From Robertmurraya massiliosenegalensis JC6 (GTDB lineage Bacteria; Bacillota; Bacilli; Bacillales; Cytobacillaceae): 64,000 nt of DNA. The notes beneath the pieces were generated by a model. It was given only the letters and a program-made list of their open reading frames with translations. It made no database searches and was not told the DNA's origin. The position numbers and the translations under genes were made by a program. The DNA is taken from the NCBI RefSeq assembly GCF_000311725.1, contig NZ_HE978512.1, positions 620,372 through 684,371 of the forward strand. The letters are read 5' to 3'. Positions within the stretch are counted from its first letter, which is position 1; each line of letters begins with the position of its first letter. This document shows positions 1,012 to 15,667 of the stretch, piece by piece.

Positions 1012-1058
1012 AAATCCTTCCAAGGTGGACAATTTTCTCCACCTTGGAAGGATTTTTT
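1012..1058. terminator. Bidirectional intrinsic terminator
   Basis: An 18-bp near-perfect stem (AAATCCTTCCAAGGTGGA with its complement) closes on a short loop and is followed by TTTTTT on the plus strand and by A/T-rich sequence on the other side. It sits between convergent genes and ends the siderophore operon and the leftward microcompartment operon. Confidence 0.9.
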
Positions 1059-1962
1059 AACCACCAATTTTACATATTAACCCTTTTTCCTCAACCACGG
1101 TTTTGAGTTTTTGCATTTTCTCATTTGTTGGTGTCGGTATTCCTTTCATTTCGTATTCATAATTTAAATAATCATATTTATTTTCTCCAAGACGGTGATA
1201 AGGAAGAAGATGCATCTCCTTTACTCCTCTAATGTTTGATGCGAACGAAGCAATAGTTTCCATCTCATCAATTCCATCATTAAAGGTTGGAATAACAGGC
1301 ACACGTATGATTATAGGAACACCGAATTGACCAATAAATTTCGCATTTTCCAATATCTTTTCATTTGACCTTCCAACAAACTCTAGGTGTTTTCTTTCAT
1401 CCGTATGTTTGATGTCTAATAACACCAAATCCAACCATGGTAGCACTTGCTCTAAAACCGCTTGACTTGTAAAGGCAGTCGTTTCAATGGCTGTATGCCA
1501 CCCTTTCTCTTTACATGCCTTTAACAATTCCTCAGCATAGTATGGTTGAGAAAGAGGCTCTCCCCCAGAAAGAGTAATCCCTCCACCAGAGCGTTTATAA
1601 TGTATATGATCTTTCTTTAACTCATTTATTACATCTTGAACGGATCTCGGATTCCCAGCAAAATTAAGTGCCTCGCTATAGCAGGCTTCTACACAAATGC
1701 CACACTTTGTACATTTGCTCTCGTCAATCTTAAAAGTAGGAACGATTTGTAATGCACCTGTTGGACACAGTTCCGTACATCTGCCACATCCGATACAGTT
1801 TCTTTTTACGAACATTATTTGTGGTTCTTTACTTTGTGACTCAGGGTTGCTACACCAACGACAGCGTAGAGGACAGCCCTTCAAGAAAACGATGGAACGA
1901 ATTCCTGGTCCGTCATGAACAGAAAAACGTTGAATATCAAAAACAATTCCCTTATCTTCCAT
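1057..1962 (-). CDS. Glycyl-radical enzyme activating protein (radical SAM)
   Basis: Radical SAM activase that abstracts a hydrogen from the glycyl residue of the diol dehydratase encoded just upstream. The SAM cluster motif CPLRCRWC (Cx3Cx2C) lies near residue 30. It is followed by two ferredoxin-type 4Fe-4S motifs, CIGCGRCTELC and CTKCGICVEAC, as in activases of PFL2-type enzymes. The ATG at 1962 (MEDKGIVFDIQ) is chosen because homologues start close to this block. A TTG at 1977 is also open but has no better ribosome site. It is the last gene of the microcompartment operon and is separated from the dehydratase by a hairpin. Confidence 0.93.
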   Translation of the reverse strand: MEDKGIVFDIQRFSVHDGPGIRSIVFLKGCPLRCRWCSNPESQSKEPQIMFVKRNCIGCGRCTELCPTGALQIVPTFKIDESKCTKCGICVEACYSEALNFAGNPRSVQDVINELKKDHIHYKRSGGGITLSGGEPLSQPYYAEELLKACKEKGWHTAIETTAFTSQAVLEQVLPWLDLVLLDIKHTDERKHLEFVGRSNEKILENAKFIGQFGVPIIIRVPVIPTFNDGIDEMETIASFASNIRGVKEMHLLPYHRLGENKYDYLNYEYEMKGIPTPTNEKMQKLKTVVEEKGLICKIGG

Positions 1963-1986
1963 TTCTCGTTGCACCAACCTTTATAA

Positions 1987-2020
1987 AAAGGAGGAGTTCA
2001 AAATAACTCCCCCTCTTATT
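1987..2020 (-). terminator. Intercistronic hairpin (attenuator-like) between dehydratase and activase
   Basis: The 9-bp arms at 1990-1998 and 2005-2013 pair with one G-U wobble and a 6-nt loop. On the minus strand the stem is followed by CTTTTT, so it can act as a partial terminator. It would make the activase transcript less abundant than the dehydratase transcript. T-rich sequence on the plus side allows bidirectional use. Confidence 0.65.
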
Positions 2021-2029
2021 TTTTTCAAT

Positions 2030-4561
2030 TTAGAATGCTTGTTCTGTACGGTTAATTATATCGTCTTGGATAGTCTTATCTAATGATGTGAAATGTGCAC
2101 TGTATCCAGCTACACGTACGACGAGATTTTTATACTTTTCAGGATTTTGTTGGGCCTTTAACAATGTTTCACGGCTTACAACGTTAAACTGTACATGCAT
2201 GCCTTTTTGGTCAAAATAACCACGGACCAATGCGGATAAATTCTCTAATCCCGTTTGGCCAGAAATAGCAGATGGATGGAATTTCTGATTAAACAATGTA
2301 CCGTTCGATGCAATATGATGATCTAATTTGGCGATAGAGTTGGCAGCCGCCGTTGGACCTGTTTTATCTCTACCAGAAACAGGAGATACCCCATCAGCTA
2401 ACGGTTCACCTGCTTTTCTTCCATCAGGCGTCGCACCCGTTTGGGCGCCCATTGGAACATTCGCAGACACTGGGTATAATCCTGGTTGGAAAGAACCTCC
2501 TCGTGGATTGCGATACTTCTCAACCTCACGGCAATAAATTAAAGCTGCCTCACGTGCAAGACTGTCTACTTCATCAATGTCATTTCCAAACTTAGGAGCA
2601 CGATTTTCAAGGAGTTGGCGTAAATACTCTTGGTCATTGCTTGAACCTAAGTCCACTTTAACGTTTGTTGCATTCTTTAGTTCATCCAAAGAGACTTTAT
2701 TTCCTTCAAGGATTAATTTTTTGATGACTTCTACAAGTTTATCTTGGGTAAGTTGATCCAGACTTAAGTTTTCAGAAGGCTGACCTTGTTGTTCACCAAA
2801 ATTGGTATCTAATGCATGTTTTAATTCAGCTAAAGAAACTTTCTTCTCATCAAACACAAGTTGTTTAATTGCCATTAAAGAATCTCCAACATTTGCTACA
2901 CCGACCCCTTGTGGACCTGTATAGTTATAAATAGCCCCGCCTTCTTGCAGTGATTTTCCTTTTCCGATACAGTCATCTACCATTGATGAAAGGAATGGAA
3001 GTGGTGCACGTTCACCATGAGCTATATCTACTGAGTTATCAGCATTGATAAGTAAACGCACAAAATATTCCATTTGCTTTTGGTAAGCATTTAAGAAATC
3101 CTCAAAGCTTTTAAACGAAGTAAATTCTCCTGTTTTTAAACCAAGTTGTTTTCCATTTATAACCCCATTATTAATGGTAATCTCAAGTACTTTTGCCATA
3201 TTGAAAAAGGCCGCATCATGCCATCCTTCTGTTTTTCCACCTTTTTGAGGTTCCACACAACCAATGATTCCGTAGTCACGAGCATCTTGTAATGAGACGC
3301 CACGTCCCACTAATGCTGGAATGATCACTTCATCATTGTAATAAGCAGGCATTCCCAGTCCCAGTCGAGTAACTTCGCCAGCCTTAAACATTAACTCATC
3401 AGGAGTCAAATTCCAGTAACGAATAGAGATAGAAGGCTGCGGTAATTTTGTATTAGCGGTTGCCTGCAAACATGCAAAGGATAATGGGTTAACAGCATCA
3501 CGACCATCGGCTGTTTGACCTCCTACAATGAGGTTTTGGAACATCGGATAACCACCGAACGCTTTTGTTGAACCTTCATCCCGAACTTTGTTTACATCAT
3601 TAAATTTCACCCATAAAGCATCTAGTAACTCTTGTGCCTCTTCTTCTGTAAGAGTTCCATTTGCTAAATCGTTTTTATAGTATGGATACATATATTGATC
3701 AAAGCGAAGAGGTGAAATGGAATGTCCATTTGATTCAATTTGAATGACTGCTTGTACGAACCAGAAAGATTGTAAAGCTTCATAGAAATTTTTAGCTGGA
3801 TTAGCCGGTACATTCTCACAGTTATCTGCAATTTGATACAACTCATTTTTACGCTTTATATCTGTTGTTCGTCCAGCTAATTTTCTTGCTTCATCTGCAA
3901 ATCTTTGAGCAAACTTAATTACGGCGTTAGCAGTAATCATCACGGCATTTAAGAAATGATCTTTTTTGATATACTCTGGGTCTGCTTTATCCGCACGTGC
4001 TTTTGCTGCTTCGACTTCAGCAATAATACCGTTAAAACCATTCTTTAAGACCTTTTCATAATCAACACCAATATGCCCTACACCATTAAAGTAATAGTTT
4101 CCTACCGTAAATACCCCTGCATCCATCGCTTCTCTTGTTTCTGGATACATCAATTGAGTTGCTAGTTCGTTTGTCGTCTTTCCTTCCCAGTATGTGAATA
4201 CATCACGAAGTCTTGCTTTTGTATCTTCTGAAATTAAGAAGACATCTCCTTTACGTTTTGCAAGGGTTTCAAACTCTTCAACCAGCCATTTATTTGAGAA
4301 TTCTGGGAACACTTGGCTAGCCCTCGGTTTAGTCGTGAGATTTCCGACAATCAGTTCATGGTCTCGGATGACGATCGTCATATGAGTTAAAATCTTTTCA
4401 AGTGCTTTAGCTCGTCGAATAACCATTGGATAAGCTTCTGTTTCCTTATAGGATTCAGTAATTAGAACAGCTCTTTCCGCTTCAATTTCAGGAGTGACAG
4501 AGTAAAGAACATCAATTAAATTTTGGATACGTAATGTTGGTTCTACTATAACTGTTGACAT
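2030..4561 (-). CDS. B12-independent glycyl-radical diol dehydratase (1,2-propanediol/glycerol type)
   Basis: 843-residue glycyl radical enzyme that dehydrates a vicinal diol to an aldehyde inside the microcompartment. The thiyl motif GCVEP puts Cys435 and Glu437 in place. The glycyl radical loop RVAGYSAHF gives Gly819. His163 (GVGHIGVDY), His280-Ser281 (NGHSIS) and Asp449 (GKTEGWHDA) match the substrate ligands of Clostridium butyricum glycerol dehydratase and of the Roseburia propanediol dehydratase. Choline lyase has a different sequence after GCVEP. The Cys-to-Gly distance of 384 residues is longer than in the glycerol enzyme, because of an insert around 585-640. AAAGGGG precedes the ATG. 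Confidence 0.95.
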   Translation of the reverse strand: MSTVIVEPTLRIQNLIDVLYSVTPEIEAERAVLITESYKETEAYPMVIRRAKALEKILTHMTIVIRDHELIVGNLTTKPRASQVFPEFSNKWLVEEFETLAKRKGDVFLISEDTKARLRDVFTYWEGKTTNELATQLMYPETREAMDAGVFTVGNYYFNGVGHIGVDYEKVLKNGFNGIIAEVEAAKARADKADPEYIKKDHFLNAVMITANAVIKFAQRFADEARKLAGRTTDIKRKNELYQIADNCENVPANPAKNFYEALQSFWFVQAVIQIESNGHSISPLRFDQYMYPYYKNDLANGTLTEEEAQELLDALWVKFNDVNKVRDEGSTKAFGGYPMFQNLIVGGQTADGRDAVNPLSFACLQATANTKLPQPSISIRYWNLTPDELMFKAGEVTRLGLGMPAYYNDEVIIPALVGRGVSLQDARDYGIIGCVEPQKGGKTEGWHDAAFFNMAKVLEITINNGVINGKQLGLKTGEFTSFKSFEDFLNAYQKQMEYFVRLLINADNSVDIAHGERAPLPFLSSMVDDCIGKGKSLQEGGAIYNYTGPQGVGVANVGDSLMAIKQLVFDEKKVSLAELKHALDTNFGEQQGQPSENLSLDQLTQDKLVEVIKKLILEGNKVSLDELKNATNVKVDLGSSNDQEYLRQLLENRAPKFGNDIDEVDSLAREAALIYCREVEKYRNPRGGSFQPGLYPVSANVPMGAQTGATPDGRKAGEPLADGVSPVSGRDKTGPTAAANSIAKLDHHIASNGTLFNQKFHPSAISGQTGLENLSALVRGYFDQKGMHVQFNVVSRETLLKAQQNPEKYKNLVVRVAGYSAHFTSLDKTIQDDIINRTEQAF

Positions 4562-4677
4562 GAATAGGTTTCCCCTTTCAATATAAAAGATTGATAGTAT
4601 CTTATTACTTCTATTACACTTTACAAATTCAACTCGTTTTTGTATGATTATGTGAGATTACTTTGTACTTTTATCTA

Positions 4678-4702
4678 GGAGAATTCCAATATTGGATTCT
4701 CC
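4678..4702. other. Perfect hairpin between glpF-like gene and dehydratase
   Basis: A 25-base near-palindrome, GGAGAA(T)TCCAA paired with TTGGATTCTCC, lies 10 bases past the stop of the channel gene. On the minus strand, where the operon runs, it is not followed by a U-run. It is therefore more likely an RNA processing or stabilising element than a full terminator. The remaining 150-base gap could hold a separate promoter for the dehydratase, but I see no convincing one. Confidence 0.5.
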
Positions 4703-4712
4703 ATTTTTCTAT

Positions 4713-5531
4713 TTAAGAAACTTTTTTATAATCCTTGTCCATAGACTCTTGTTTTGCAACTGGAAAATATGGAGCGATTAACTTCTTATAAATACCCCCT
4801 CCAAGAACTGCTCCAATAATTGGTCCGAATATCGGAACGATTAAACCGTATAATTGTGGTCCAATTACGTTTGTTTCCCAACCTGATATCATCATGAAAA
4901 TACGTGGACCTAAATCACGGGCTGGATTCATAGCAAACCCCGTTAGAGGTCCGAAAGAGATTCCACAAATCGCAATCGTTAACCCTATCGCTACTGCTGG
5001 TAATCCAGCCGTTGGTGCTGCGCCATTTTTCTTATCGGTAACAGCGAAGATTACAATCATTAAGAACGCAGTGATGGCAATCTCAACAAAAAGAGCTTCC
5101 ATTGTGGAAAGGTAAGGCTTTGGATAGGTACTAAAAATCCCAGCAGATGCCCACCCACTCTCTGTAGACCGGACAATCTCGTTCGTATTTTCAAAATTGA
5201 TTATCGCATTGCGGAACAATCCATAAACAACCGCCGCCCCTGCAAAAGCACCTATCACTTGTGAAGCGATATAGTGTGGGATCTTCCTTTTGTCAAACCC
5301 GCCCCAAACACCTAGACCAATGGTAACAGCTGGATTAATATGGCCTCCTGAGATTGACCCTACTACATATATGGCAATCATTACCGCTATACCCCAAGCA
5401 ATAGATAATTCCCAAAAACTCATTGAGATATCAGCAGTAACCATTGCTGCTACAGTTCCAACCCCTATAAAAATCAAGATAAAGGTTCCGAAAAATTCAG
5501 CTAAACATTCGCCCCATAAGGTCTTACTCAT
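4713..5531 (-). CDS. MIP-family glycerol/propanediol facilitator (GlpF/PduF-like)
   Basis: A 272-residue, six-helix aquaglyceroporin for passive diol entry. Both NPA boxes are intact: SGGHINPAVT near residue 65 and GFAMNPARDLGPR near residue 205. The Asp after NPAR is the glyceroporin hallmark and separates it from water-only channels. PduF of B12-dependent propanediol loci belongs to the same family. In this operon the substrate is probably the diol used by the neighbouring dehydratase. AAGGAGAG precedes the ATG. Confidence 0.93.
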   Translation of the reverse strand: MSKTLWGECLAEFFGTFILIFIGVGTVAAMVTADISMSFWELSIAWGIAVMIAIYVVGSISGGHINPAVTIGLGVWGGFDKRKIPHYIASQVIGAFAGAAVVYGLFRNAIINFENTNEIVRSTESGWASAGIFSTYPKPYLSTMEALFVEIAITAFLMIVIFAVTDKKNGAAPTAGLPAVAIGLTIAICGISFGPLTGFAMNPARDLGPRIFMMISGWETNVIGPQLYGLIVPIFGPIIGAVLGGGIYKKLIAPYFPVAKQESMDKDYKKVS

Positions 5532-5545
5532 TTTTAACTCTCCTT

Positions 5546-6730
5546 TTAATTAGAAAGTACTAAGCTTATTTTCTCTTCTTTCACTTTTTCGCCGTAGATG
5601 GCTGAATATAGTTCGATAATCTCTTCTTTTGATGTAGTTCTTGGGTTCGTAGCTGTACAGCGATCATTTAGTGCTGCCTCACTCATATAGTCGAGCTTTT
5701 CTCTAAATATTTCTTTATCTACCTTCAATTCTCTTAAACTATTAGGAGTATTGGTTTCTGCCAACAATACTTTTATTGCAGTAACCAAATTGTGTACTCC
5801 TTCACAAACCGTGGCAGCTGGCAGCCCCAAAATCTTCGAAAGCTCTGCATATCTTTTAGCAGCTTGTGTTTCTTGACCACTTTCAAGGTTAGCGTTGTAA
5901 CGTATCACATGTGGGAGAATCATGGCATTTGCTCTCCCATGAGGAATGTGAAATGAGCCTCCTAAAGCATGTGCCAAACTATGATTCAATCCGAGATATG
6001 CGTTTGTAAATGCCATCCCGGCGATGCAAGAGGCGTTGTGAAGCTTTTCTCTTGCGTGCATATCATTTCCATCCTTAAAGGCTAGCAACAAATAATCGAA
6101 GATCAATTTTATTGATTTTTCTGCTAAGGCATCCGAGTAATCAGATGCTTCCGTTGATACATAAGCTTCAATTGCATGTGTTAATGCATCGATCGCTGTA
6201 TCAGCCGTAATGGAAGGAGGAACTGTTTTCACAAACATAGGATCGATAATCGCTATATCCGGTAATAACTCATCGTCCACTAATGGGATTTTTTTATCAC
6301 CCATTGTAATGACTGCAAATGTCGTTACTTCAGAGCCAGTCCCACTTGTTGTCGGAATGGCAACGAATTGCGGTCTTTCATAGCCAACCTCACCATTAAT
6401 TTGAAGAATTTTTTCATAAAACCATAAGATACTTTTTGCCGCATCAATGGTTGATCCTCCGCCTAAAGCAATAAGAATATCAGGTTTCACTCGTAACATT
6501 TCCTTAACTCCATCAGCGACTATATCAATTGGTGGATCTGGTTTTATATTAGAAAAAAGAGTACAATCGGATACAGAATTCTTCAGTATATTTAGAAGTT
6601 GTTCAGAGAATCCAACTTCAATCATAAAAGGATCGGTGATTACGAGAGCTTTTGTTTTATTAACCATCGTTAAATATTCCAACGCTCCATTATTAAAATA
6701 CACCTCTGGTTTAATCTTAAAATGTTCCAT
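5546..6730 (-). CDS. Iron-dependent alcohol dehydrogenase (PduQ/1,3-propanediol dehydrogenase type)
   Basis: Group III (Fe-dependent) alcohol dehydrogenase, about 394 residues. It reduces the aldehyde made by the dehydratase and regenerates NAD+ for the aldehyde dehydrogenase. The NAD-binding GGGSTIDAAK lies near residue 92. The metal-binding segment SLAHALGGSFHIPHGRANA is in the middle. A GTG at 6733 is also open, but GGGAGG is better spaced to the ATG at 6730. The gene sits between the vertex protein and the channel gene, consistent with a lumen enzyme. Confidence 0.93.
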   Translation of the reverse strand: MEHFKIKPEVYFNNGALEYLTMVNKTKALVITDPFMIEVGFSEQLLNILKNSVSDCTLFSNIKPDPPIDIVADGVKEMLRVKPDILIALGGGSTIDAAKSILWFYEKILQINGEVGYERPQFVAIPTTSGTGSEVTTFAVITMGDKKIPLVDDELLPDIAIIDPMFVKTVPPSITADTAIDALTHAIEAYVSTEASDYSDALAEKSIKLIFDYLLLAFKDGNDMHAREKLHNASCIAGMAFTNAYLGLNHSLAHALGGSFHIPHGRANAMILPHVIRYNANLESGQETQAAKRYAELSKILGLPAATVCEGVHNLVTAIKVLLAETNTPNSLRELKVDKEIFREKLDYMSEAALNDRCTATNPRTTSKEEIIELYSAIYGEKVKEEKISLVLSN

Positions 6731-6759
6731 CACTGCCCTCCCAAAAAAGAGACTTTTAC

Positions 6760-7026
6760 TTATTTACCTTCAAGTTGAATTTCATCAATTATCCCAACAA
6801 TTGCCATATCTGCAGCAAGTTTTGCTTCTTCATAAAGGGAGTCCCCCCAGTCTACAAGAACGATGTCATTCATTCCGGCTCCTACTCTATCAACTGCCAC
6901 TAAGGCACCTTCTTCTGAAAATTTGGTATGTTCATTAAGTGATTTAATGACAAGTAGTTTTGAACCTACAAGCTTTTCTGCCTTTTGGGTGGATACGACT
7001 TTGCCAATTACCTTTGCAATAAACAT
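6760..7026 (-). CDS. BMC-P vertex protein (EutN/CcmL family)
   Basis: 88-residue pentameric shell protein that caps the icosahedral vertices of a microcompartment. It begins MFIAKVIGKVVSTQK and contains the family core LLVIKSL, GALVAVDRVGAGMNDIVLVDWG and AIVGIIDEI. The length matches EutN/CcmL. It is the only BMC-P in the locus. AAGGGAG precedes the ATG at a good distance. Confidence 0.95.
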   Translation of the reverse strand: MFIAKVIGKVVSTQKAEKLVGSKLLVIKSLNEHTKFSEEGALVAVDRVGAGMNDIVLVDWGDSLYEEAKLAADMAIVGIIDEIQLEGK

Positions 7027-7057
7027 TGAACTCGACTCCCTTTAGCTAGTATCAAAA

Positions 7058-8515
7058 CTACCTAATGATTTCCTCAAGCAGGTTCTTAATAATTTCTTCA
7101 ATATTTTCCTCAGAAATTTTTACAGGTGAATTTATTGGTCTATCACCTTTTAAGTCATACAGTTCTTTCACTCCATAGGCGACTCTACGAATATTAATGA
7201 GGTTTAGTGGACCAACATTATCTGACGTTGAACTACCACCCACTGCTCCACATCCAAGTGTTAAAGCTGGAACTAAATTTGTCGTACCACCAATCCCGCC
7301 TAGGGCACCAGGTGTGTTTACTAACATTCTTGATACTGGTTTTTTCAGGGCAAATTCCCTGATTATTTCTTCATTTTCAGAGTGCATGATTAATGTATGA
7401 CCTTTACCCTCGTTATATAGTAATTCCATACATCTTTCACAAGCTTTTTCCCAATTATCCTCACAATAAAAAGCTAAGATAGGTGCTAACTTTTCTCTTG
7501 AATATGGATTGGTTTTCGAAACGCTATTTTGTTCAGAGATTAGCACTTTTGTCCCTTTTGGAATTTTAAGCTCTGCTAAATCAGCAATCTCTTCCACGCA
7601 TTTTCCAACGATCTGAGGGTTCATCGTTCCATTTGCTCGCAACAGCCACTTTCCGAGTTTATCTGACTCTTCTTTTGATAGGAAATAAGCTCCCTGATCA
7701 ACTAACTCAGCAACTACCTGTGCTTCAATGTCTTTTTCCACTACAATCGATTGCTCAGATGCACAAATCACGCCATTATCAAATGTCTTACTATCCAAGA
7801 TTCGTTTAACAGCTAATGGAATATTAGCTGACCTTTCGATAAAAGCTGGTCCATTACCTGGTCCAACTCCGATGGCAGGTGTGCCTGAACTATACGCAGC
7901 CTTTACCATTGCTTCTCCACCTGTAGCAAGGATCAAAGCAATATCCTTATGTTTCATCAATTCATTTGTTGCTTGAAGTGTAGGTGTCTTAATACAACCA
8001 ATTAACCCATCTGGAGCACCTGCCTGTACCGCAGCTTTTGAAAGAATTTTAACTGTTTCTAGAATGCAATTTCTTGCAGATGGATGCGGTGAAAATACAA
8101 TCCCATTTCCAGACTTTAAAGCAATTAACGATTTATAGATCGTTGTAGAAGTTGGATTTGTGGAAGGAATTAATCCTGCTACAATCCCCACTGGGACAGC
8201 CACTTCATATATTTTTTTTATTTGATCATCTTGGATGATACCAACTGTCTTTAACTCTCTTATATAGTCATAAACTACAGAACTAGCAAAATGATTTTTT
8301 AATACTTTATCTTGCCATTTTCCAAAGCCTGTTTCTTCATATGCCATTTTCGCTAGTCGTTCTGCTTGTTGTTCTGCCGCTTCAGACATCTTTAAAACAA
8401 CTCGATCAATTTGTTCTTGAGTAAATTGGCTGAAAATATGTTGTGCTTCCTTTGCCTTGTCTATAAGATTTCTAGTTTCTTGGATGGATCTTAAATCATT
8501 ATCCCAGATTTCCAT
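7058..8515 (-). CDS. pduP: CoA-acylating aldehyde dehydrogenase (PduP-like) with C-terminal encapsulation peptide
   Basis: 485-residue enzyme that converts propanal (or 3-hydroxypropanal) plus CoA and NAD+ to the acyl-CoA. Catalytic Cys251 lies in FDNGVICASEQ. The glycine-rich GVGPGNGPAFIE is just before it. Residues 465-485 (KISEENIEEIIKNLLEEII) form a short amphipathic helix after a Pro-containing linker, the usual form of an encapsulation peptide. Some families carry this signal at the N terminus, so the C-terminal position is informative. The ATG has AGGAGG upstream. Propanediol use is inferred from the dehydratase. Confidence 0.94.
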   Translation of the reverse strand: MEIWDNDLRSIQETRNLIDKAKEAQHIFSQFTQEQIDRVVLKMSEAAEQQAERLAKMAYEETGFGKWQDKVLKNHFASSVVYDYIRELKTVGIIQDDQIKKIYEVAVPVGIVAGLIPSTNPTSTTIYKSLIALKSGNGIVFSPHPSARNCILETVKILSKAAVQAGAPDGLIGCIKTPTLQATNELMKHKDIALILATGGEAMVKAAYSSGTPAIGVGPGNGPAFIERSANIPLAVKRILDSKTFDNGVICASEQSIVVEKDIEAQVVAELVDQGAYFLSKEESDKLGKWLLRANGTMNPQIVGKCVEEIADLAELKIPKGTKVLISEQNSVSKTNPYSREKLAPILAFYCEDNWEKACERCMELLYNEGKGHTLIMHSENEEIIREFALKKPVSRMLVNTPGALGGIGGTTNLVPALTLGCGAVGGSSTSDNVGPLNLINIRRVAYGVKELYDLKGDRPINSPVKISEENIEEIIKNLLEEIIR

Positions 8516-8544
8516 TTCTTTACCTCCTAATGCCCATGAGAAAT

Positions 8545-9324
8545 CTATTCATTCGTAATTTCTATTTTCATTTGATTGTCGCTTATAAAATCTTTAGCTA
8601 ACGGTGTAACAATAGTGGAAGGTTTAATTTGAATGACAGCATGTTGTTCATATTTTCTAATATCCCCTGCTGTAAGTATGGACGAATCCACCTTTACCTT
8701 GTCTTCAGAAGATGTTTGATGATTGCTTTGCGTTAGTACAAGTTTTTTTTCAGCATTAATTCTCTCACTACTTGGATTTATCTTATTTAAGAGAACTGAT
8801 TTAAACTCTTCTAATGGGATGAATTTCACCCCAAACTGTTCCAAACATGTTTCATAGCTTTTCAACATTTCGTTATATGCCTGATTACGGGCTAATTCCT
8901 TCACCCGATTGATCGGATGGTTTGAATCAAAACTATCTTTTACAGCCAACACTTCTTTGCCCATCATCAGAGCTCTTGCAATCCCTGTTGTTACAAGATT
9001 GTCAGCAATCCCAAGGGCTACTTTAGATAGTGTATTACGTGTCATTATTGGAATTAACACAAAATCAGCTTCATTCAGTGACTTTTCAAGTTCTGAAAAA
9101 GATTGGATTGTTTCACCATTCAATTCTTCAATCAGTGTATTTGGAATCATTTTTTTTCCACTATCGGAAAGAACAAGCTCATAATTCTTTTGGTCAAATT
9201 CAGCTAATACTTTTAATAAAATTTCCGTATTAACTGAGCCTCCACTTAGAAAAATGAGGATTTTCTTGCTTCTTTCAGGAAGTAAATTCTGGAGCAAGTT
9301 CCGGACAAGCTCTTCGATATTCAT
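8545..9324 (-). CDS. BMC-associated flavoprotein-family protein
   Basis: 259-residue protein with a Rossmann-like flavoprotein (HFCD/UbiX-like) core: KKILIFLSGGSVN near residue 20, then ADFVLIPIMTRNTLSKVALGIADNLVTTGIARALMMGKEVLAV around 85-130. Members occur in glycyl-radical microcompartment loci, but I know of no established function. The first 15 residues (NIEELVRNLLQNLL) are amphipathic and resemble an encapsulation peptide, so a lumen location is likely. The C-terminal 70 residues look like a variable tail. AAGGGGG precedes the ATG. Confidence 0.8.
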   Translation of the reverse strand: MNIEELVRNLLQNLLPERSKKILIFLSGGSVNTEILLKVLAEFDQKNYELVLSDSGKKMIPNTLIEELNGETIQSFSELEKSLNEADFVLIPIMTRNTLSKVALGIADNLVTTGIARALMMGKEVLAVKDSFDSNHPINRVKELARNQAYNEMLKSYETCLEQFGVKFIPLEEFKSVLLNKINPSSERINAEKKLVLTQSNHQTSSEDKVKVDSSILTAGDIRKYEQHAVIQIKPSTIVTPLAKDFISDNQMKIEITNE

Positions 9325-9340
9325 CTATCAACCCGCCCCC

Positions 9341-10171
9341 TTATTTTGCATACATCGCAATTCCTAGAGGAGTGACAAGTAATGGATTGTATGGCTTTAT
9401 GGTGTAGATAGCAGTATACTTTTGGAATACTTCTTCTATACCATCCATACAGGACGTTCCACCCACCAAGTAGATTTGTTTAACATCTTTAATGATATTT
9501 CTCTTTGTAATTTCAGCCATTTTTTCAAGAACTGGACGTACAATCGGAAATACTAAAGGATGGCTTTCTCGTTGATGCTTGATCTTTTCTGCTTCGTCAA
9601 ACTCAACTTTCATACTTCCAGATAAAACGAGTGTTAAATGGGTTCCACCAGTAGGTTCATCCACAGAATATAAGATTTCTCCATTTTTCAGAACTGAAAT
9701 GCCGGTTGTCCCTCCACCAATATCTACAACAGCTCCATCCGAGATGGCTAGTACTTTAGCTGCAGCTACGGGTTCTTCCACGACATTAGTTACTACAAAA
9801 CCAGCCGCTTCCACAACATTGGTAATGACTTTAATATTTCCCGGTAAAATTCCTGGTGGTATCGCTGTAGCAGCCTCTTCAAGTTGAATACCCAAACGTT
9901 GTTCAAGTTGGGCCTTCAACCTACCCAAAACCTTTACGGCCCCAATGAAATCAACGACAATTCCATCTCTAACTACTTTTGCTGATTCCATTGCTCCTGT
10001 GATAGGTTGATCATTTTTATCTAAAACGACGATGACAATATTAGAGGTACCTAGATCAACACCCACTTTTATTCCTAATTTCAAATCATAAGAAGAATCT
10101 ATTTCTTCAGTCAGAATCTTTGTCTCCAACTCTTTGATTAATGCATTTACACACTGTTCCATTGGTTTCAC
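9341..10171 (-). CDS. eutJ: EutJ-like Hsp70/actin-fold ATPase
   Basis: 276-residue member of the EutJ family, an actin/Hsp70-fold ATPase found in ethanolamine and glycyl-radical microcompartment loci. Phosphate-binding loops are visible: [16 protein letters not shown] near residue 35 and [16 protein letters not shown] near residue 145. The adenosine motif [14 protein letters not shown] is near the C terminus. The family is thought to act as a chaperone or in reactivation, but its role is not settled. It overlaps pduL by four bases (ATGA), so it is translationally coupled. Confidence 0.9.
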
Positions 10172-10830
10172 CTACTACGACCTATTATGCGAACCATATC
10201 TCTATTTTTTAATTCAGTTGCATTTGCTTCGTCAGTATCAATGTGTAATTCCAATGTAGAGTCTCCTGTTACTCGAACTAACACGTTATGGAGAATTGCC
10301 TTTTTCTCTCCTATAGTCTCTACATCCACTAACTCACCATCTGTAACCCCAAATTGTTCGGCATCACTTGGAGACATGTGAATATGCCTTTTTGCACATA
10401 TTACTTTTTCTTTAAAAACCATCATCCCTTTTGGTCCAATTACACATAGGTCAGATGAGGCAAGCGTATCACCAGAAACTCGAATCGGCGGTTTAATCCC
10501 TAATTGAAATGAGTCGGTTCTTGATATTTCAATTTGACTATAGTTCCGAACAGGTCCGAGCACACGTACGTTTGGATAACAGCCCTTTGGCCCTGCAATA
10601 CAGACTGTTTCCTTTGCTGCAAATTGACCTGTCTGACTTAAGGGTGATTTAAATGTTAGTTCATAATCTGTTCCAAATAGGACTTCCATATCTTCTTTAT
10701 TAAGATGAATATGCCTATTCGAAACGCCAACTGGTATACTCAGGGTTCTATCTTTAATACTCATCTTCTTAGTTAGCTCTAAGGCAAACTCTTTGATAAT
10801 GGATTCTTCTACATTCATTTTCCCAATCAT
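10168..10830 (-). CDS. pduL: PduL-type phosphate propanoyltransferase
   Basis: 220-residue phosphotransacylase that converts acyl-CoA to acyl-phosphate and recycles CoA inside the shell. The zinc-binding histidines are in SNRHIHL (near residue 40) and AKRHIHM (near residue 142). The two half-domains each have the PduL pattern. The first 20 residues ([19 protein letters not shown]) form a likely encapsulation helix. No acetate/propionate kinase is in the operon, so ATP must be made by a kinase elsewhere. Four-base overlaps on both sides couple it to the shell protein and to EutJ. Confidence 0.95.
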
Positions 10831-11396
10831 CCTAACACTTCTTGATGTTCTTTATGATGTAAACAAAGGGTTCTTGGCTGTCCCTTCTCTCTTGTACATT
10901 TCGGGTCGTTGCATAGATTACAGCTTGCTTCTGCTTTAGCTATCTCTAAAGAATCCTCTGACTCAATTTCCTGTTCCGTCAAGACTACATCGTTAGCTTC
11001 CGCTTCTTCCTCTATCGCAATTGAAACTTCTTGTTGTTCAATCCCTGACACTAATTCTGATGTTTCTTCATGAGCTTCTTCTACGTATAAAGTCCCTTCT
11101 TCTTCTTTTTCCTCTGTAGCCTCCAAAGATTGATGGAACTGATTAAGTGCTAGCGCAGGTCTAGGGATAACCAAACTGGAAATAACTGTACCAATATTTG
11201 AGGCGCTCATCTTCCCAGCAGCAACAGCGGCTTGAACAGCACCGACATCCCCTTCAATTTTTACCGTTACCATTCCTGGAGTGACTGTCTCATACCCAAC
11301 AAAACGAACATTAGCAGCTTTTAAACTAGCATCAGCGGCTTCAAGCGCTGGAACCAATCCAATAACTTCAATTAATCCTAGAGCTTCTTGTTTCAT
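10827..11396 (-). CDS. BMC-H shell protein with Cys-rich C-terminal extension
   Basis: One BMC domain ([22 protein letters not shown] through [10 protein letters not shown], about 90 residues) forms the hexameric facet tile. It is followed by an acidic linker of about 65 residues and a terminal [20 protein letters not shown] segment. The Cx2Cx4C...CxHH spacing suggests metal or Fe-S binding. Ordinary PduA/EutM tiles are about 95 residues, so the tail is an addition. The start is ATG 11396: an open GTG at 11405 is part of the AGGAGTG ribosome site. The stop overlaps pduL. Confidence 0.9.
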
Positions 11397-11523
11397 AAAA
11401 AACACTCCTATTGTTCCTTAATCCCATTCATTTCTACAAAGTTAAACCAGAGAGCTAAAAGAGAAAATTTTCCCAAAAATGCTTTATTTCTTTTAGCTCA
11501 AATGGCTATCCTTCATTGATGAT

Positions 11524-12360
11524 TTAAAGGTTTGGTGTTGTCACGGGTTGAGGATCTTGTCCCATTGATATTAAGATGCTTAAGCCAACTTCTCTTGCAG
11601 AGATAAGGGACTGCCTAACGGCACCAGAATCCCCAGTAATTGTGACAATAATTTCATTTGAACGCGCTGTTCCCTTATCAGGACTTGCATATGTCACTAT
11701 ATCAACATTAGCCGTCTTAAGTGCAGTATCCGCCATCACTAATCCAACTGCAGCAGGTGCACCCACAATGATTCCAAATGACTTTCCTATAGGAGCACCA
11801 AATGCTTTTTCCACCGCAAGGCTAGCTCTAGCCGTATAGTGAAGTTCAATATGTCCCGCATCACAGCCATATACATCTCCAAAAGTACGTTCTACTTCTT
11901 TTAATGTGACTTCTACAGCTCTTCTTGCATCGGAAACATCTTCAGCGGCAAAGATAATGGTTGCCCCGTGTCCTGCTCCTCCTTTTGTATCTCTCGCTAA
12001 TTCAATTGATACGATTTCGGAATTAGTAGCTTTAACAGCTTCATCGGCCGCCATAATATGCGGTCCTCCACCGGTTCGAGCACTGATAATTCCAATCGAT
12101 CGATATTTCGGGTCTAATCCAACACTCTCATGAAGATTTCTATCTAAATTGGCGATTACCAATCCAACTGTATCGCCAATTGTTGAGCCAACATATTCCG
12201 TAATTGTAGGCATTTCAACCGTCATGGTTCCAACCTTCTTTCCTTGTTCTGATTGATGATCATTATTTGTCCCAACTTTAACGAAAGGGCTTACATCTCC
12301 ATCCGTATTTAACTTCCTTTGGGCTTCTTCTAATACCTTTTGTAACAAATATTGATCCAT
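11524..12360 (-). CDS. pduB: BMC-T tandem-domain shell protein (PduB-like)
   Basis: 278-residue trimeric shell protein with two fused BMC domains. The N-terminal extension (about 40 residues) and the phrases VETPTITEYVG, GIISARTGGGPHIMAADEAVKAT and FGIIVGAPAAVGLVMADTALKTANVDIVTYASP follow the PduB/EtuB pattern. PduB-type trimers carry a facet pore and can help anchor cargo. It lies between two BMC-H genes. The gap to the next shell gene is 127 bases with no clear hairpin. Confidence 0.94.
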   Translation of the reverse strand: MDQYLLQKVLEEAQRKLNTDGDVSPFVKVGTNNDHQSEQGKKVGTMTVEMPTITEYVGSTIGDTVGLVIANLDRNLHESVGLDPKYRSIGIISARTGGGPHIMAADEAVKATNSEIVSIELARDTKGGAGHGATIIFAAEDVSDARRAVEVTLKEVERTFGDVYGCDAGHIELHYTARASLAVEKAFGAPIGKSFGIIVGAPAAVGLVMADTALKTANVDIVTYASPDKGTARSNEIIVTITGDSGAVRQSLISAREVGLSILISMGQDPQPVTTPNL

Positions 12361-12364
12361 GGTC

Positions 12365-12661
12365 TTACCTCACAGGTTCCATTTCAGCAAACTTCGGTAG
12401 AATTCTTTCAACATCCATATGCGGTCTTGGAATTACATGTACAGAAATAACTTCTCCAACACGTTTTGCGGAAGCTACTCCTGCATCAGTTGACGCCTTA
12501 ACAGCCCCTACATCCCCACGAACCATCACCGTAACAAGGCCAGAACCAATTTTTTCATACCCAATTAGCTCAACATTAGCTGCCTTTACCATTGAATCTG
12601 CTGCTTCAACTGCTGCCACCAAACCTTTAGTCTCAATCATTCCTAATGCTTCTTGTCCCAC
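12365..12661 (-). CDS. pduA: BMC-H hexameric shell protein (PduA-like)
   Basis: 98-residue canonical single-BMC-domain tile, the first gene of the leftward operon. Signature parts are [35 protein letters not shown] and [11 protein letters not shown]. The start is GTG at 12661: GGAGGTG lies 7 bases before it, and the longer open frame to 12715 adds residues unlike the family. It has the length of PduA/EutM and would form most of the facet surface. Confidence 0.93.
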
Positions 12662-12715
12662 AAGAAAACACCTCCAAAAAATTATTGTGAATCTATTTAA
12701 AATGTTACTATTCAT

Positions 12716-13014
12716 TTTCGTATTTTCATTTGACTATTTTGACAAGAACTATAAGAAATTTAACTTTTTAACTTATACTTTTTTGACATTCATGTTAGAA
12801 AATACAAAAATAGGTAGGTATAGTGAATATATTTACTACAGAAAGAACTCTACCCTTATGTAATTATTTCGAAATACCGTTCAAGAAATAGTCAGTATTT
12901 TAATTTATTTGACTATGTTAAAATGTAATTGCTTAGTTTGTTCAATCATTCACAAGAAGTACTTAGACACCTAGTTCCTTACATATATTTTATTTACTAG
13001 GAGGTAGTAGAGTC
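12716..13014. promoter_or_regulatory. Divergent control region with repeated TGACTAT motifs
   Basis: About 300 bases between the shell operon and the sensor kinase. ATTTGACTAT occurs exactly at 12728-12737 and 12907-12916. The inverse ATAGTCA lies at 12888-12894 and forms, with 12910-12916, a 7-bp inverted repeat with a 15-base gap. AraC-type response regulators usually bind paired direct or inverted half-sites, so these are candidate sites for the neighbouring regulator. No cre site was seen. Confidence 0.55.
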
Positions 13015-14223
13015 GTGCAAGAAAATTTACTACTAACAGACGTCATCGATGTTAAGACATTAATGAGTGCACAAGCTAAACTGGCAAAAATCGTTAATAT
13101 CCCTGTCATTACGGTGGATTGTGAGGGTAATCCAATCGGTCATAATAATTTCACCCCTTTTTGTAGCCTCATTCGTTCTTCACAAAAAGGAGCCAAACAA
13201 TGCGTTTCATGTGATGATAGAGCTGGTAAACTAGCCGTCAAATATCGGCAAGCAAGAATTTATGATTGTCACATGGGCTTAAAGGACTGTGTCTCCCCTA
13301 TTTTTGTAAACGATATTTTCCTCGGTTCAGTATTAGGTGGACAAGTACTAATAGAAGGTGAACAGACAAGAGACTCCATAGATTTGAAAACGATTTCTAA
13401 AGAGTTCGATATTCCAGAAGATGAATTACAAGAGGTCATTAACCAAATTCCGATCGTATCACAGGAATATTTAGAAAATTGCTCAGATTTTTATAATTTT
13501 CTAGCAAACTATTTTGCTCAGATGGGGATGCATAGGCTAACACAGGAGAAATATCTACGAGAAAGTAGAGATAAGCTTCGCCTTGAGCAAAAAGCGAAGA
13601 AAATGGAATTAAAGACCATTCAAGCCCAAATCAATCCCCATTTTCTTTTTAATACATTAAATTCAATCGCTCGAATGTCTTTAATTGAAGATGCTCCACA
13701 AACAGAAGAATTGATTTATAATCTATCAGACTTATTAAGATATAGCCTTAAAAATATTGAAGATTTCCCTAAAATAAGGGATGAAATGAGTAATATTGAG
13801 AAGTACCTTTTTATACAGACTCTACGCTTTAGTGATCGAATTACGTATAGTATTTCCATTGACGATACCTTACTAGAATATCGTATTCCTTCTATGACCT
13901 TGCAACCATTGGTAGAAAACTGTTTAGTCCACGGTCTTGAAACAAAAAAGGAAGGAGGAAAGGTAGAAATTAGTGGTCTAATCAATGACCAAGATGAAGT
14001 AATACTTACGATTAAGGATAATGGGATCGGAATTGCAACCGAATTACTTGAGCGACTTAATCATTTTGATGATACGAACTCTACTGGAATCGGAGTACTC
14101 AATACTCAGGAACGATTAAAACATTTTTTCGGTTCAAAGTATGGATTGCATTTTGAAAGCACCCCCCATGTTGGAACAAGTGTGACAGTCCATATTCCAT
14201 GTATTAAAGACTATCCAAAATAA
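13015..14223 (+). CDS. Cytoplasmic PocR-domain sensor histidine kinase
   Basis: 402-residue kinase without membrane segments. Residues 1-170 are a PocR sensory domain (LLTDVIDVKTLMSAQAKLAKIVNIPVITVD, FCSLIRSSQKGAKQC, YDCHMGLKDCVSPI), a fold that senses small diols in PocR of Salmonella. A LytS-type His kinase domain follows: QAQINPHFLFNTLNSIARM holds the phospho-His. The ATPase domain has LVENCLVHG and DNGIGI. It starts with GTG after AGGAGGTAG. It is paired with the response regulator 14 bases downstream and divergent from the microcompartment genes, so it probably senses the diol. Confidence 0.92.
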   Translation: MQENLLLTDVIDVKTLMSAQAKLAKIVNIPVITVDCEGNPIGHNNFTPFCSLIRSSQKGAKQCVSCDDRAGKLAVKYRQARIYDCHMGLKDCVSPIFVNDIFLGSVLGGQVLIEGEQTRDSIDLKTISKEFDIPEDELQEVINQIPIVSQEYLENCSDFYNFLANYFAQMGMHRLTQEKYLRESRDKLRLEQKAKKMELKTIQAQINPHFLFNTLNSIARMSLIEDAPQTEELIYNLSDLLRYSLKNIEDFPKIRDEMSNIEKYLFIQTLRFSDRITYSISIDDTLLEYRIPSMTLQPLVENCLVHGLETKKEGGKVEISGLINDQDEVILTIKDNGIGIATELLERLNHFDDTNSTGIGVLNTQERLKHFFGSKYGLHFESTPHVGTSVTVHIPCIKDYPK

Positions 14224-14236
14224 GGGGAGATATGAA

Positions 14237-15004
14237 ATGATTAAACTTTTGATTGTTGAAGACGAACCCTTGGAAAGAGTAGCTTTAAGGAAGATTATTG
14301 GAAGGGAGTTTCATAATATTGAAATCCTTGAAGATGCAAAAAATGGTACCGAAGCCATTGAAATGGCAAAAACACAGCAACCTAACGTTATACTTATGGA
14401 CATAAGAATGCCAGAGTCCACTGGTATTGAAGCACAGAAAAAGATCATTCAATTTCTTCCAAATGTAAAGTGCATCATTATTACTGCATATAACGATTTT
14501 ATCTATGCACAAGAAGCCATTAAATATGGCGTAATTGACTATTTATTAAAGCCCGCAAAACCTCAAGAAATTAAAAATGCGATTGAAAAAGCCTTATCAT
14601 TAAACTCAAAGTTAGACAGAAATCACACAACTAATATATTTGAAAACAACTCTACCCAACAAATATTAATGGAAGTCATAAGTTATATAAAGCAAAATTA
14701 CAAGCATGAGCTTCGGCTAACCGAGGTGGCAACTATGGTCCATCTAAATCCACAATATTTTAGCAGGCTTTTTAAGAAAGAATTAGGAACAACCTTTACC
14801 GATTACGTAACAAAATTACGAATTGAAGAAGCAAAGACCCTCCTCAAAGAATCTAATCTTCCTATCTATCGGATTGCAGTAGATTTAGGATTCTCTGATG
14901 CTGCCTACTTCAGTAAAGTATTTTTAAAATACGAAAAAGAATCTCCACTTGAATTTAAGAAAAGGCATGAACACTTTGAAAAAAAGCGTCTTTTAAGCAA
15001 TTAA
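14237..15004 (+). CDS. AraC-type response regulator of the microcompartment locus
   Basis: 255 residues. The N-terminal receiver domain has the phospho-acceptor Asp in VILMDIRMP (about residue 54) and the acidic pair VEDEP. The C-terminal AraC domain has two helix-turn-helix units (LTEVATMVHLNPQYFSRLFKKELG and IYRIAVDLGFSDAAYFSKVFLKY). GGGGAG lies before the ATG. Partner of the PocR kinase and likely activator of the divergent shell operon. A terminator follows. Confidence 0.93.
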   Translation: MIKLLIVEDEPLERVALRKIIGREFHNIEILEDAKNGTEAIEMAKTQQPNVILMDIRMPESTGIEAQKKIIQFLPNVKCIIITAYNDFIYAQEAIKYGVIDYLLKPAKPQEIKNAIEKALSLNSKLDRNHTTNIFENNSTQQILMEVISYIKQNYKHELRLTEVATMVHLNPQYFSRLFKKELGTTFTDYVTKLRIEEAKTLLKESNLPIYRIAVDLGFSDAAYFSKVFLKYEKESPLEFKKRHEHFEKKRLLSN

Positions 15005-15017
15005 CCCTCCATAATCA

Positions 15018-15053
15018 CTAAAAACGATTCGATACTTTACGAATCGTTTTTAG
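15018..15053. terminator. Intrinsic terminator between convergent genes
   Basis: A perfect 14-bp stem, arms 15018-15031 and 15040-15053, with an 8-base loop. The arms carry A5 and T5 runs, so it can work in both directions: for the response regulator and for the parR-like gene. Confidence 0.85.
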
Positions 15054-15070
15054 TTTCAATTAAAAGAATA

Positions 15071-15655
15071 CTACTTATTCATCTTACTAAGAAAATCCCC
15101 TAATAAATGATCTAGATCATTTTCTTCCTCTTCTTCGGTTATCGGTTGGTTGTGTTCCACTGAATTCCACTCAAATGCATCTAAATCATCCATCTTATCC
15201 GTTTCTATCGTTACAGCGGTTTCCTTTATAACTGGAAACGAATCATGCGGTGTCTCCGTTTCAGGGAACTCTTCGTCTTCTTGTAAATACAATGCTTCGT
15301 TTATATTAATAGAATTGCTATTTAGTGATGTCATCAAGGCGGTTGCTCGAATTGGATCGTTTAATAGTTGATAGACTATCGTCCCTAAGAGGGCCTCTGA
15401 ATGCTCATGCTTTAGCCAATCTCGTTGTGATTTACTTAATTTATGAGGAAGAGGAACGGTAATTGTCTCCCGTTCCTTTGACGATGTTTCTCCAACTCCT
15501 CGGAGGACAAACTCAGCAATTTTACTCGAAAAATTCCTTCTTTCTATTTCCTTCAGCCTTTGTAAATGCTTTAATAGATGATCTGGAGTATCAGAGGGGA
15601 CACGAAATGAAATGGCTTGTCCTCTCTTAATCTCATTTGAACTAGAGCTTTTCAT
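15071..15655 (-). CDS. ParR-like ribbon-helix-helix partition adaptor
   Basis: 194-residue protein encoded 12 bases after the ParM-like gene. Residues 10-55 (GQAISFRVPSDTPDHLL and NFSSKIAEFVLRGVGE) fit a ribbon-helix-helix DNA-binding fold as in ParR. The second half is disordered and strongly acidic, ending in EEEEENDLDHLLGDFLSKMNK, a plausible filament-binding tail. ParR family sequence identity is always low, so the call rests on fold pattern, size and linkage. Confidence 0.7.
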   Translation of the reverse strand: MKSSSSNEIKRGQAISFRVPSDTPDHLLKHLQRLKEIERRNFSSKIAEFVLRGVGETSSKERETITVPLPHKLSKSQRDWLKHEHSEALLGTIVYQLLNDPIRATALMTSLNSNSININEALYLQEDEEFPETETPHDSFPVIKETAVTIETDKMDDLDAFEWNSVEHNQPITEEEEENDLDHLLGDFLSKMNK

Positions 15656-15667
15656 TGAAACACCCTA

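What the first reader, a model, noticed from the sequence alone, without database searches (positions are those of the whole stretch)
1057..15004. Complete B12-free diol microcompartment in a Bacillaceae with its own PocR two-component sensor
All parts for a glycyl-radical diol microcompartment are present: dehydratase, activase, aldehyde and alcohol dehydrogenases, PduL, EutJ, flavoprotein, one vertex, one trimer and two hexamer shell proteins, and a MIP channel. No sugar-phosphate aldolase is present, so the diol is probably taken up rather than made from fucose or rhamnose. The PocR domain is fused to a cytosolic kinase instead of an AraC domain. The set is unusual for bacilli, and the subtype does not fit a standard layout I can name with certainty. 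No acyl-phosphate kinase is included.
Basis: partly seen in the sequence, partly recalled or inferred. Interest (0 to 1): 0.85.

Follow-up and report, generated by a model that had tools for sequence, protein, structure and literature searches.

The report
B12-free diol organelle in Bacillaceae
A relative of Bacillus carries a complete set of genes for a protein-shelled organelle that should break down small diols without vitamin B12; it is built with an unusual aldehyde enzyme and shares its genome with a second, B12-using diol organelle.

Summary
Window 1057-12658 (-) holds 12 genes for a glycyl-radical diol metabolosome, with a divergent PocR-kinase/AraC-type pair at 13015-15004. The parts are mostly known: the GRE has the internal insert of GRM3/4/5 enzymes, and PocR kinases are described already, E. 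coli GrpP among them. BMC genes occur in 94 of 193 family genomes, this GRE at 80% identity or more in 5 of 193. Three things were missed. (1) The GRE groups apart from GRM3, GRM4-like and GRM5 GREs. (2) Its AldDH is type I (EUT2/choline side); all GRM3, GRM4-like and GRM5-group loci with a typed AldDH had type II. One hexamer has a PduK-like tetracysteine tail. (3) The same genome has a B12-dependent PDU metabolosome with its own PocR-kinase pair and CbiD, close to a counter-example to the published statement that GRM3 and PDU never co-occur. The substrate is open: 1,2-propanediol, ethylene glycol or glycerol. The lineage may be the 2021 catalogue's GRM6, whose definition I could not see.

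The parts
1057..1977 (-). GRE activating enzyme (radical SAM, CX3CX2C, with ferredoxin-type 4Fe-4S motifs)
   Evidence: TIGR02494 over cut-off; PF04055 and PF00037 with two stretches
2030..4561 (-). glycyl radical diol dehydratase, 843 aa; H163, H280, S281, C435, E437, D449 and radical Gly819 match CbGDH H164, H281, S282, C433, E435, D447, G763
   Evidence: PF02901/PF01228; best PDB match C. butyricum glycerol dehydratase 1r8w, 1139 bits; columns; positions. That these are the catalytic residues of CbGDH is recalled
2639..2797 (-). 53-residue insert in the GRE (residues 589-641), probable internal encapsulation peptide (LTQDKLVEVIKKLILEGN helix)
   Evidence: absent from CbGDH and from close non-BMC relatives L004, L149-L151; same place as the predicted EP of GRM3/5 GREs (PMC5311937)
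4713..5531 (-). MIP channel, probable diol facilitator
   Evidence: PF00230
5546..6733 (-). iron-containing alcohol dehydrogenase, nearest solved relative is the ADH domain of a bifunctional AdhE-type enzyme
   Evidence: PF00465/PF25137; 3zdr 370 bits against 194 for 1,3-propanediol oxidoreductase 3bfj
6760..7026 (-). BMC-P vertex protein (EutN/CcmL)
   Evidence: PF03319
7058..8515 (-). CoA-acylating aldehyde dehydrogenase, type I (EUT2/choline-GRM side)
   Evidence: TIGR02518 811.5 bits over cut-off 620; tree; best PDB match 3k9d
7061..7117 (-). C-terminal amphipathic helix of the AldDH, probable encapsulation peptide (ISEENIEEIIKNLLEEIIR)
   Evidence: highest hydrophobic moment of the protein; type I AldDHs carry C-terminal EPs (PMC8217296)
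8545..9324 (-). flavoprotein with N-terminal amphipathic helix (possible EP)
   Evidence: PF02441
9341..10171 (-). EutJ-family actin/Hsp70-like protein
   Evidence: PRK15080 369.8 bits over cut-off 182
10168..10830 (-). PduL phosphotransacylase
   Evidence: PF06130; PRK15070 over cut-off
10827..11405 (-). BMC-H hexamer protein with acidic linker and PduK-like C-terminal tail
   Evidence: PF00936; tail comparison
10863..10922 (-). tetracysteine tail motif [20 protein letters not shown] (C162, C165, C170, C181)
   Evidence: also in L002, L003, L005, L006, L008, L109-L111; positions
11524..12360 (-). BMC-T trimer protein (two BMC domains)
   Evidence: PF00936, two stretches
12365..12658 (-). BMC-H hexamer protein; ORF open to 12715 but start probably GTG 12658
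   Evidence: PF00936; start by comparison with relatives
13015..14223 (+). PocR-domain sensor histidine kinase
   Evidence: PF10114 141 bits, PF06580, PF02518; hydropathy
14237..15004 (+). response regulator, REC + AraC-type HTH
   Evidence: PF00072, PF12833

Best explanation
A complete anaerobic metabolosome for a short vicinal diol. Shown by sequence: the gene set, the kept diol-dehydratase residues, the internal insert in the GRE, the type I AldDH with a C-terminal helix, the conserved gene order, the GRE's own branch, and a PDU locus in the same genome. Inferred: a diol enters through the MIP channel; the cytosolic PocR kinase senses it and phosphorylates the AraC-type regulator, which switches on the operon; the activase puts a radical on Gly819 of the GRE; the GRE removes water to give an aldehyde inside the shell; the AldDH and PduL turn half into acyl-phosphate, which an acetate-type kinase encoded elsewhere turns into ATP and acid; the ADH reduces the other half to alcohol and returns NAD+. 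It is a lineage of its own among GRE metabolosomes in that the diol-type GRE is paired with an acetaldehyde-type AldDH instead of the PduP-type one. Substrate, my weights: 1,2-propanediol 0.42, ethylene glycol 0.25, glycerol 0.20, other 0.13.
For: Family matches. GRE nearest to C. butyricum GDH with the seven checked positions kept. Insert at the known internal-EP site, missing from close non-BMC relatives. GRE branch apart from GRM3, GRM4-like and GRM5 in two trees (93; 96 for the 11 BMC rows). AldDH on the type I side of a 100 (SH-aLRT) branch. In loci with both genes (AldDH typed by score): of 14 loci with GRE residues N279/G334/P337, 11 have type I (window, nine clade loci, L153) and 3, GRM4-like, type II; of 35 loci with S279/A334, 34 have type II and 1 was untyped. 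Same gene order in L108-L111, largely in L002, L005, L006, L008; PocR kinase and regulator in each of these. Acetate kinases elsewhere. A GRM3 locus with a kinase/regulator pair is induced by 1,2-propanediol, with shell-like bodies, in C. ljungdahlii (PMC12016505, passages).
Against: No experiment. No model of this GRE; the fold job never ran. The substrate cannot be read from sequence: GRM4-like loci have the same GRE residues with type II AldDH, and E. coli EutE, an acetaldehyde enzyme, falls on the type II side, so neither trait fixes the substrate. The separate branch rests on SH-type supports from FastTree and quick IQ-TREE runs; the AU tests of the window groupings did not finish, and the place of the non-BMC relatives differs between trees (inside the clade, unresolved). 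L007 has no PduK-like hexamer match, and L005 no EutJ or MIP match.
Confidence: 0.8

Rival explanations
1. It is simply a 1,2-propanediol GRM, redundant with the PDU locus of the same genome and used when oxygen or B12/cobalt is low.
For: The BMC-linked internal-EP GREs tested act on 1,2-propanediol (R. palustris, R. inulinivorans: PMC5311937, PMC6325248); the closest solved enzyme, CbGDH, also accepts it (PMC3543383); GRM4-like loci have the same GRE residues; MIP and PocR also occur in PDU loci.
Against: The AldDH is not the PduP type; the genome already has a B12-dependent PDU locus and CbiD; the GRE lacks the residues shared by GRM3 and GRM5 enzymes.
Confidence: 0.42
2. It is an ethylene glycol metabolosome: the GRE makes acetaldehyde, which the EUT2-like AldDH and the AdhE-like ADH turn into acetyl-CoA and ethanol.
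For: AldDH groups with EUT2 and choline-GRM enzymes and is like them around the catalytic cysteine; ADH nearest to AdhE; division of labour with PDU. B12-type PDU loci are induced by or linked to ethylene glycol use (PMC7593272 passages; PMC11255663 start of abstract). A GRE for 1,2-ethanediol was proposed in Pelobacter, but a different enzyme (PMC3543383).
Against: I saw no report of a GRE shown to act on ethylene glycol; A. woodii uses its PDU locus, so no dedicated system is needed; the ADH of the own PDU locus is AdhE-like too, so that trait says little.
Confidence: 0.25
3. It is a glycerol metabolosome: the GRE makes 3-hydroxypropanal, which is kept in the shell and split into 1,3-propanediol and 3-hydroxypropionate.
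For: Best PDB match is the C. butyricum glycerol dehydratase, and the clade shares its N279, G334, P337, M338 where the GRM3 and GRM5 groups mostly differ.
Against: Those residues also occur in deep and GRM4-like GREs, so they look ancestral; the ADH is far from 1,3-propanediol dehydrogenases; the AldDH is acetaldehyde-type.
Confidence: 0.2
4. The cassette is silent or decaying, a leftover of transfer from Clostridia.
For: Patchy: 5 of 193 family genomes; GRE 80% identical to that of Desulforamulus; EutJ of one relative is in two frames.
Against: All 14 window reading frames are open; same order in four other family genomes.
Confidence: 0.05

Closest known systems
GRM3 metabolosome (E. coli grp, Rhodopseudomonas palustris BisB18)
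   Same: GRE with internal EP, activase with ferredoxin insert, PduL, EutJ, flavoprotein, vertex, hexamer and trimer shell proteins, ADH, PocR-kinase pair
   Different: GRE on another branch (58% identity to GrpM); AldDH type I with C-terminal helix instead of type II with N-terminal EP; no kinase, DUF336, protease or SAM synthetase gene in the cassette; MIP and PduK-like tail present
GRM4 metabolosome (Shewanella type; L010, L011, L019 are called GRM4-like by me)
   Same: internal EP; MIP; a similar tetracysteine tail in L011
   Different: GRM4 is described with a PDU-type shell (PMC8217296); type II AldDH and another GRE branch in the GRM4-like loci
EUT2 metabolosome (Listeria, C. difficile, Cetobacterium)
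   Same: type I AldDH 62-67% identical
   Different: signature enzyme is B12-dependent EutBC, not a GRE
C. butyricum glycerol dehydratase with its PocR two-component system
   Same: nearest solved GRE; PocR-type two-component regulation (PMC4207490)
   Different: no shell and no internal EP (PMC5311937)
PDU1 (own genome L167/L168; Listeria L106)
   Same: diol dehydration in a shell; PduL, EutJ, hexamer like Listeria PduK (my label); PocR kinase in the own genome
   Different: B12 enzyme PduCDE with reactivase, type II AldDH, PduO

Membership tests
GRM (glycyl radical enzyme metabolosome) | GRE (pfam01228 + pfam02901) and activase (pfam04055) in one locus with shell proteins (PMC6325248) | tested here: met
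GRM3 | GRE groups with GRM3 GREs | tested here: not met
   apart from E. coli GrpM, L024, L035, L049; AU test of window + GRM3 did not finish
GRM3 | internal EP insert in the GRE | tested here: met
GRM3 | AldDH of type II with N-terminal EP (as in R. palustris) | tested here: not met
   some GRM3 AldDHs were already outliers in PMC4207490
GRM3 | flavoprotein, EutJ and two-component pair as ancillary genes | tested here: met
   list from PMC4207490, which also names kinase, peptidase, SAM synthetase and DUF336, not in this cassette
GRM3b | GrpU shell protein (53 of 55 loci, PMC6325248) | tested here: inconclusive
   two hexamer genes in the cassette, neither named GrpU by the models scanned; no GrpU model was run
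GRM4 | PduK homologue with tetracysteine tail | tested here: met
GRM4 | PDU-type core with type II AldDH; GRE with GRM4-like GREs | tested here: not met
GRM5 | fuculose-phosphate aldolase in the locus; activase without ferredoxin insert (PMC6325248) | tested here: not met
   no aldolase among the cassette genes; activase has PF00037
GRM1/GRM2 (choline) | CutC-type GRE over the TIGR04394 cut-off | tested here: not met
   594 bits against 1050
GRM6 | definition in the supplement of PMC8217296 | not testable with these tools
PDU | B12-dependent PduCDE in the locus | tested here: not met
   the only PF02286 match of the genome is on another contig, C1

The most novel reading that the evidence does not exclude
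The cassette is a B12-independent ethylene glycol metabolosome: an early GRE lineage joined to the acetaldehyde-processing core of EUT2/choline organelles. It works beside a PDU organelle that handles 1,2-propanediol, each switched on by its own PocR kinase. This would be a substrate not yet shown for a GRE organelle in the papers I saw, and would explain why the two loci can live in one genome.
Probability: 0.22. Interest if true: 0.68.

Novelty: new variant of a known kind. Interest (0 to 1): 0.47.

Why it matters
GRM loci are sorted by signature enzyme, and the AldDH is used to guess the substrate (PMC8217296). This lineage joins a diol-dehydratase GRE to an acetaldehyde-type AldDH, so the two guides point different ways, and a plain enzyme assay would settle which holds. 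Two of the five family carriers also have a PDU-type dehydratase, and in both it lies among PDU shell genes. A 2017 paper says GRM3 and PDU clusters never co-occur (PMC5311937). That makes the supposed redundancy of B12 and glycyl-radical diol organelles testable within one cell. The lineage also adds PduK-like cysteine tails to GRM shells, where such homologues were counted in 4 of 536 loci in 2019 (PMC6325248).

Tried and rejected
Choline lyase: rejected. Filing as GRM3 or GRM5: rejected by GRE branch and AldDH type. Convergence of the GRM3 and GRM5 residues as proof of a glycerol pocket here: not shown, because GRM3+GRM5 as one clade is not rejected (p-AU 0.327), and GRM4-like loci break the link. 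Simple sigma-54, cre and FNR patterns in the divergent promoter: none; promoter-like sites in 12600-15200 were mildly above shuffles (16 against mean 10.6, sd 2.8). Rfam: nothing at gathering score in the window. AldDH: six positions passed my filter between this clade and other type I rows; none is shown to line the pocket. AU tests of 'window + GRM3' and 'whole window clade' did not finish. Zarzycki 2015 (PMC4644659) is not held. The trees left out duplicate loci of the same genomes. The GRM5 group is 60 of the 61 rows that grouped with RiPDD, labelled by tree and not by aldolase. L004 and L149 (both 7854 bases) are probably one contig, and L003 and L108 one genome; the 15 'window' rows hold both L004 and L149. 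The AldDH tree left out L003 and did not hold L153, which was typed by score only. In some searches the window GRE lacks its start codon, so its printed positions are one too low; one search gives the right ones.
Full report
What is there. The window is G000:C2:620372-684371 of a 4.96 Mb genome (24 contigs, completeness 100, contamination 0.72). Its GRE is 93% identical to that of Neobacillus niacini MER TA 87 (L003). The gene order on the minus strand, from the promoter side, is BMC-H, BMC-T, BMC-H with tail, PduL, EutJ, flavoprotein, AldDH, BMC-P, ADH, MIP, GRE, activase. The PocR kinase and the REC-AraC regulator are divergent. The first hexamer gene probably starts at GTG 12658, where a GGAGGTG and the start codon align in relatives.

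The dehydratase. The best solved relative is the C. butyricum glycerol dehydratase (1139 bits), then 9rco (1050) and the Roseburia propanediol dehydratase (1039); choline lyases score 579 or less. Positions H164, H281, S282, C433, E435, D447 and G763 of CbGDH, catalytic by my recall, are kept (window numbers). A 53-residue insert (589-641) sits where GRM3 and GRM5 enzymes have a predicted internal encapsulation peptide (PMC5311937 passages; PMC6325248 sections 5, 8, 9, 14). Close non-BMC relatives lack it (L004 74% identical; L150 77%; also L149 and L151). In those held stretches only GRE, activase and a MIP gene matched my query set.

A separate lineage. In a FastTree tree of 92 GREs the window sits in a 12-row clade (support 93) next to a group holding CbGDH, GRM3 (E. 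coli GrpM) and GRM5 (RiPDD). In a quick IQ-TREE of 53 rows, with six residue sites and the insert removed, the 11 BMC members group at 96, and GRM3 (6 rows) and GRM5 (17 rows) at 100; the non-BMC relatives are then unresolved. The AldDH tree of 62 rows splits at 100 into 24 type I-side rows (window clade, EUT2, choline GRM, two of L007) and 38 type II-side rows (E. coli GrpJ, GRM5 group, GRM4-like, PduP, EutE). Loci with both genes, AldDH typed by score: GRE residues N279/G334/P337 with type I in 11 (window, nine clade loci, L153) and with type II in 3 (GRM4-like); S279/A334 with type II in 34 and untyped in 1; L035 (N-A-A) with type II; two choline loci with type I. A 2014 taxonomy already saw odd GRM3 AldDHs: some nested in GRM1, and secondary copies in C. 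saccharolyticum and C. beijerinckii near the Listeria PDU/EUT one (PMC4207490 passages). In the passages I saw it made no type of them.

The shell tail. One hexamer has an acidic linker and a tail C-N-[LI]-C-x-D-[PA]-x-C-x-R-x-K-G...C-x-H, present in the window and in L002, L003, L005, L006, L008 and L109-L111. A hexamer of Listeria PDU (PduK by my label) has it too, and the GRM4-like L011 has a similar one. L007 has no such match. PduK homologues were counted in 4 of 536 GRM loci (PMC6325248). No models for GrpU or PduS were run; the PduT model (TIGR02526) hit the tail hexamer far below cut-off (28 against 250).

Two organelles in one genome. Contig C1 has PduC (NF011979 1041 bits, cut-off 788), PduO, a PduP-type AldDH (PRK15398 725 bits, cut-off 403) and an acetate/propionate kinase. 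It also has dehydratase medium and small subunits, reactivase large and small subunits, vertex and trimer proteins, and hexamers, PduL and EutJ. A PocR-His_kinase-HATPase kinase and a REC-AraC regulator of its own lie beside them. The genome also has CbiD, so de novo B12 synthesis is likely but not proven. PF02286 was found in 2 of 15 carriers of this GRE clade that I searched (11 BMC-type, 4 non-BMC; one pair may be the same assembly): G000 and G073. The PDU genes of G073 are on L170, with a one-piece PocR-AraC regulator. A 2017 paper states that GRM3 and PDU clusters never co-occur (PMC5311937). This cassette is not a canonical GRM3, so it is a near counter-example.

Distribution. The GRE at 80% or more identity occurs in 5 of 193 genomes of the family (17 of 193 match at E 1e-100; the other 12 are 36-40% identical). 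In a sample of 397 genomes of the order, 3 match: the own genome and two at 43% and 37%. In a phylum sample, 7 of 398 match at E 1e-200, the own genome included. BMC-domain genes occur in 94 of 193 family genomes. The GRE is 80% identical to that of Desulforamulus, in another class, so transfer of the cassette is likely; I did not look for an empty site.

Mechanism and substrate. The general route (diol to aldehyde, then acid plus alcohol with ATP) follows the metabolosome model (PMC5311937). The acyl-phosphate kinase is encoded elsewhere. The evidence on the substrate parts. GRE family and known GRM enzymes favour 1,2-propanediol. The residues near the active site are CbGDH-like, which allows glycerol but looks ancestral. 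The AldDH is of the acetaldehyde side and the ADH is AdhE-like, which favours ethylene glycol, but the PDU ADH of the same genome is AdhE-like as well and E. coli EutE shows that AldDH type and substrate are not strictly tied. A second organelle argues for a second substrate but also fits use under other oxygen or B12 supply. I give 0.42, 0.25 and 0.20 to 1,2-propanediol, ethylene glycol and glycerol, and 0.13 to others.

Is it known? The kind is known (GRM). No held paper has both 'microcompartment' and 'Neobacillus'. The listings showed none whose title or abstract start describes this combination; of the papers cited I read passages or sections only. The lineage may be that type.

Noticed in passing
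G000:C1, L167 5394-19836 and L168 697-4367: B12-dependent PDU locus with a flavoprotein where PduM would be, EutJ, and its own PocR-kinase and REC-AraC pair.
   Followed up: yes
L092-L099 (eight genomes of genus g19 in the window's family): GREs 36-37% identical to the window's, each next to a type I-side AldDH and with a BMC-domain gene about 10-12 kb away on the same contig. The one scanned (L094) is CutC (1671 bits, cut-off 1050): choline metabolosomes.
   Followed up: partly
L153 1159-11907: A deep-branching GRE without the internal insert lies in a locus with PocR kinase, two shell proteins and a type I-like AldDH; how it would be packed into a shell is unclear.
   Followed up: partly
L109 11989-12815: EutJ of G072 is split over two reading frames, as by a frameshift or assembly error.
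   Followed up: no
15071-16831: Alp7A/ParM-like actin gene followed by a gene without a family match, on a large contig directly beside the cassette.
   Followed up: no
L007 (Clostridium aminobutyricum): Two AldDH-PduL-hexamer blocks (AldDHs 86% identical) lie on either side of one GRE of this clade, as by an old duplication.
   Followed up: partly
about 12700-12830: TTTGAC-like elements partly aligned in the five family genomes in the divergent promoter; possible regulator sites.
   Followed up: no
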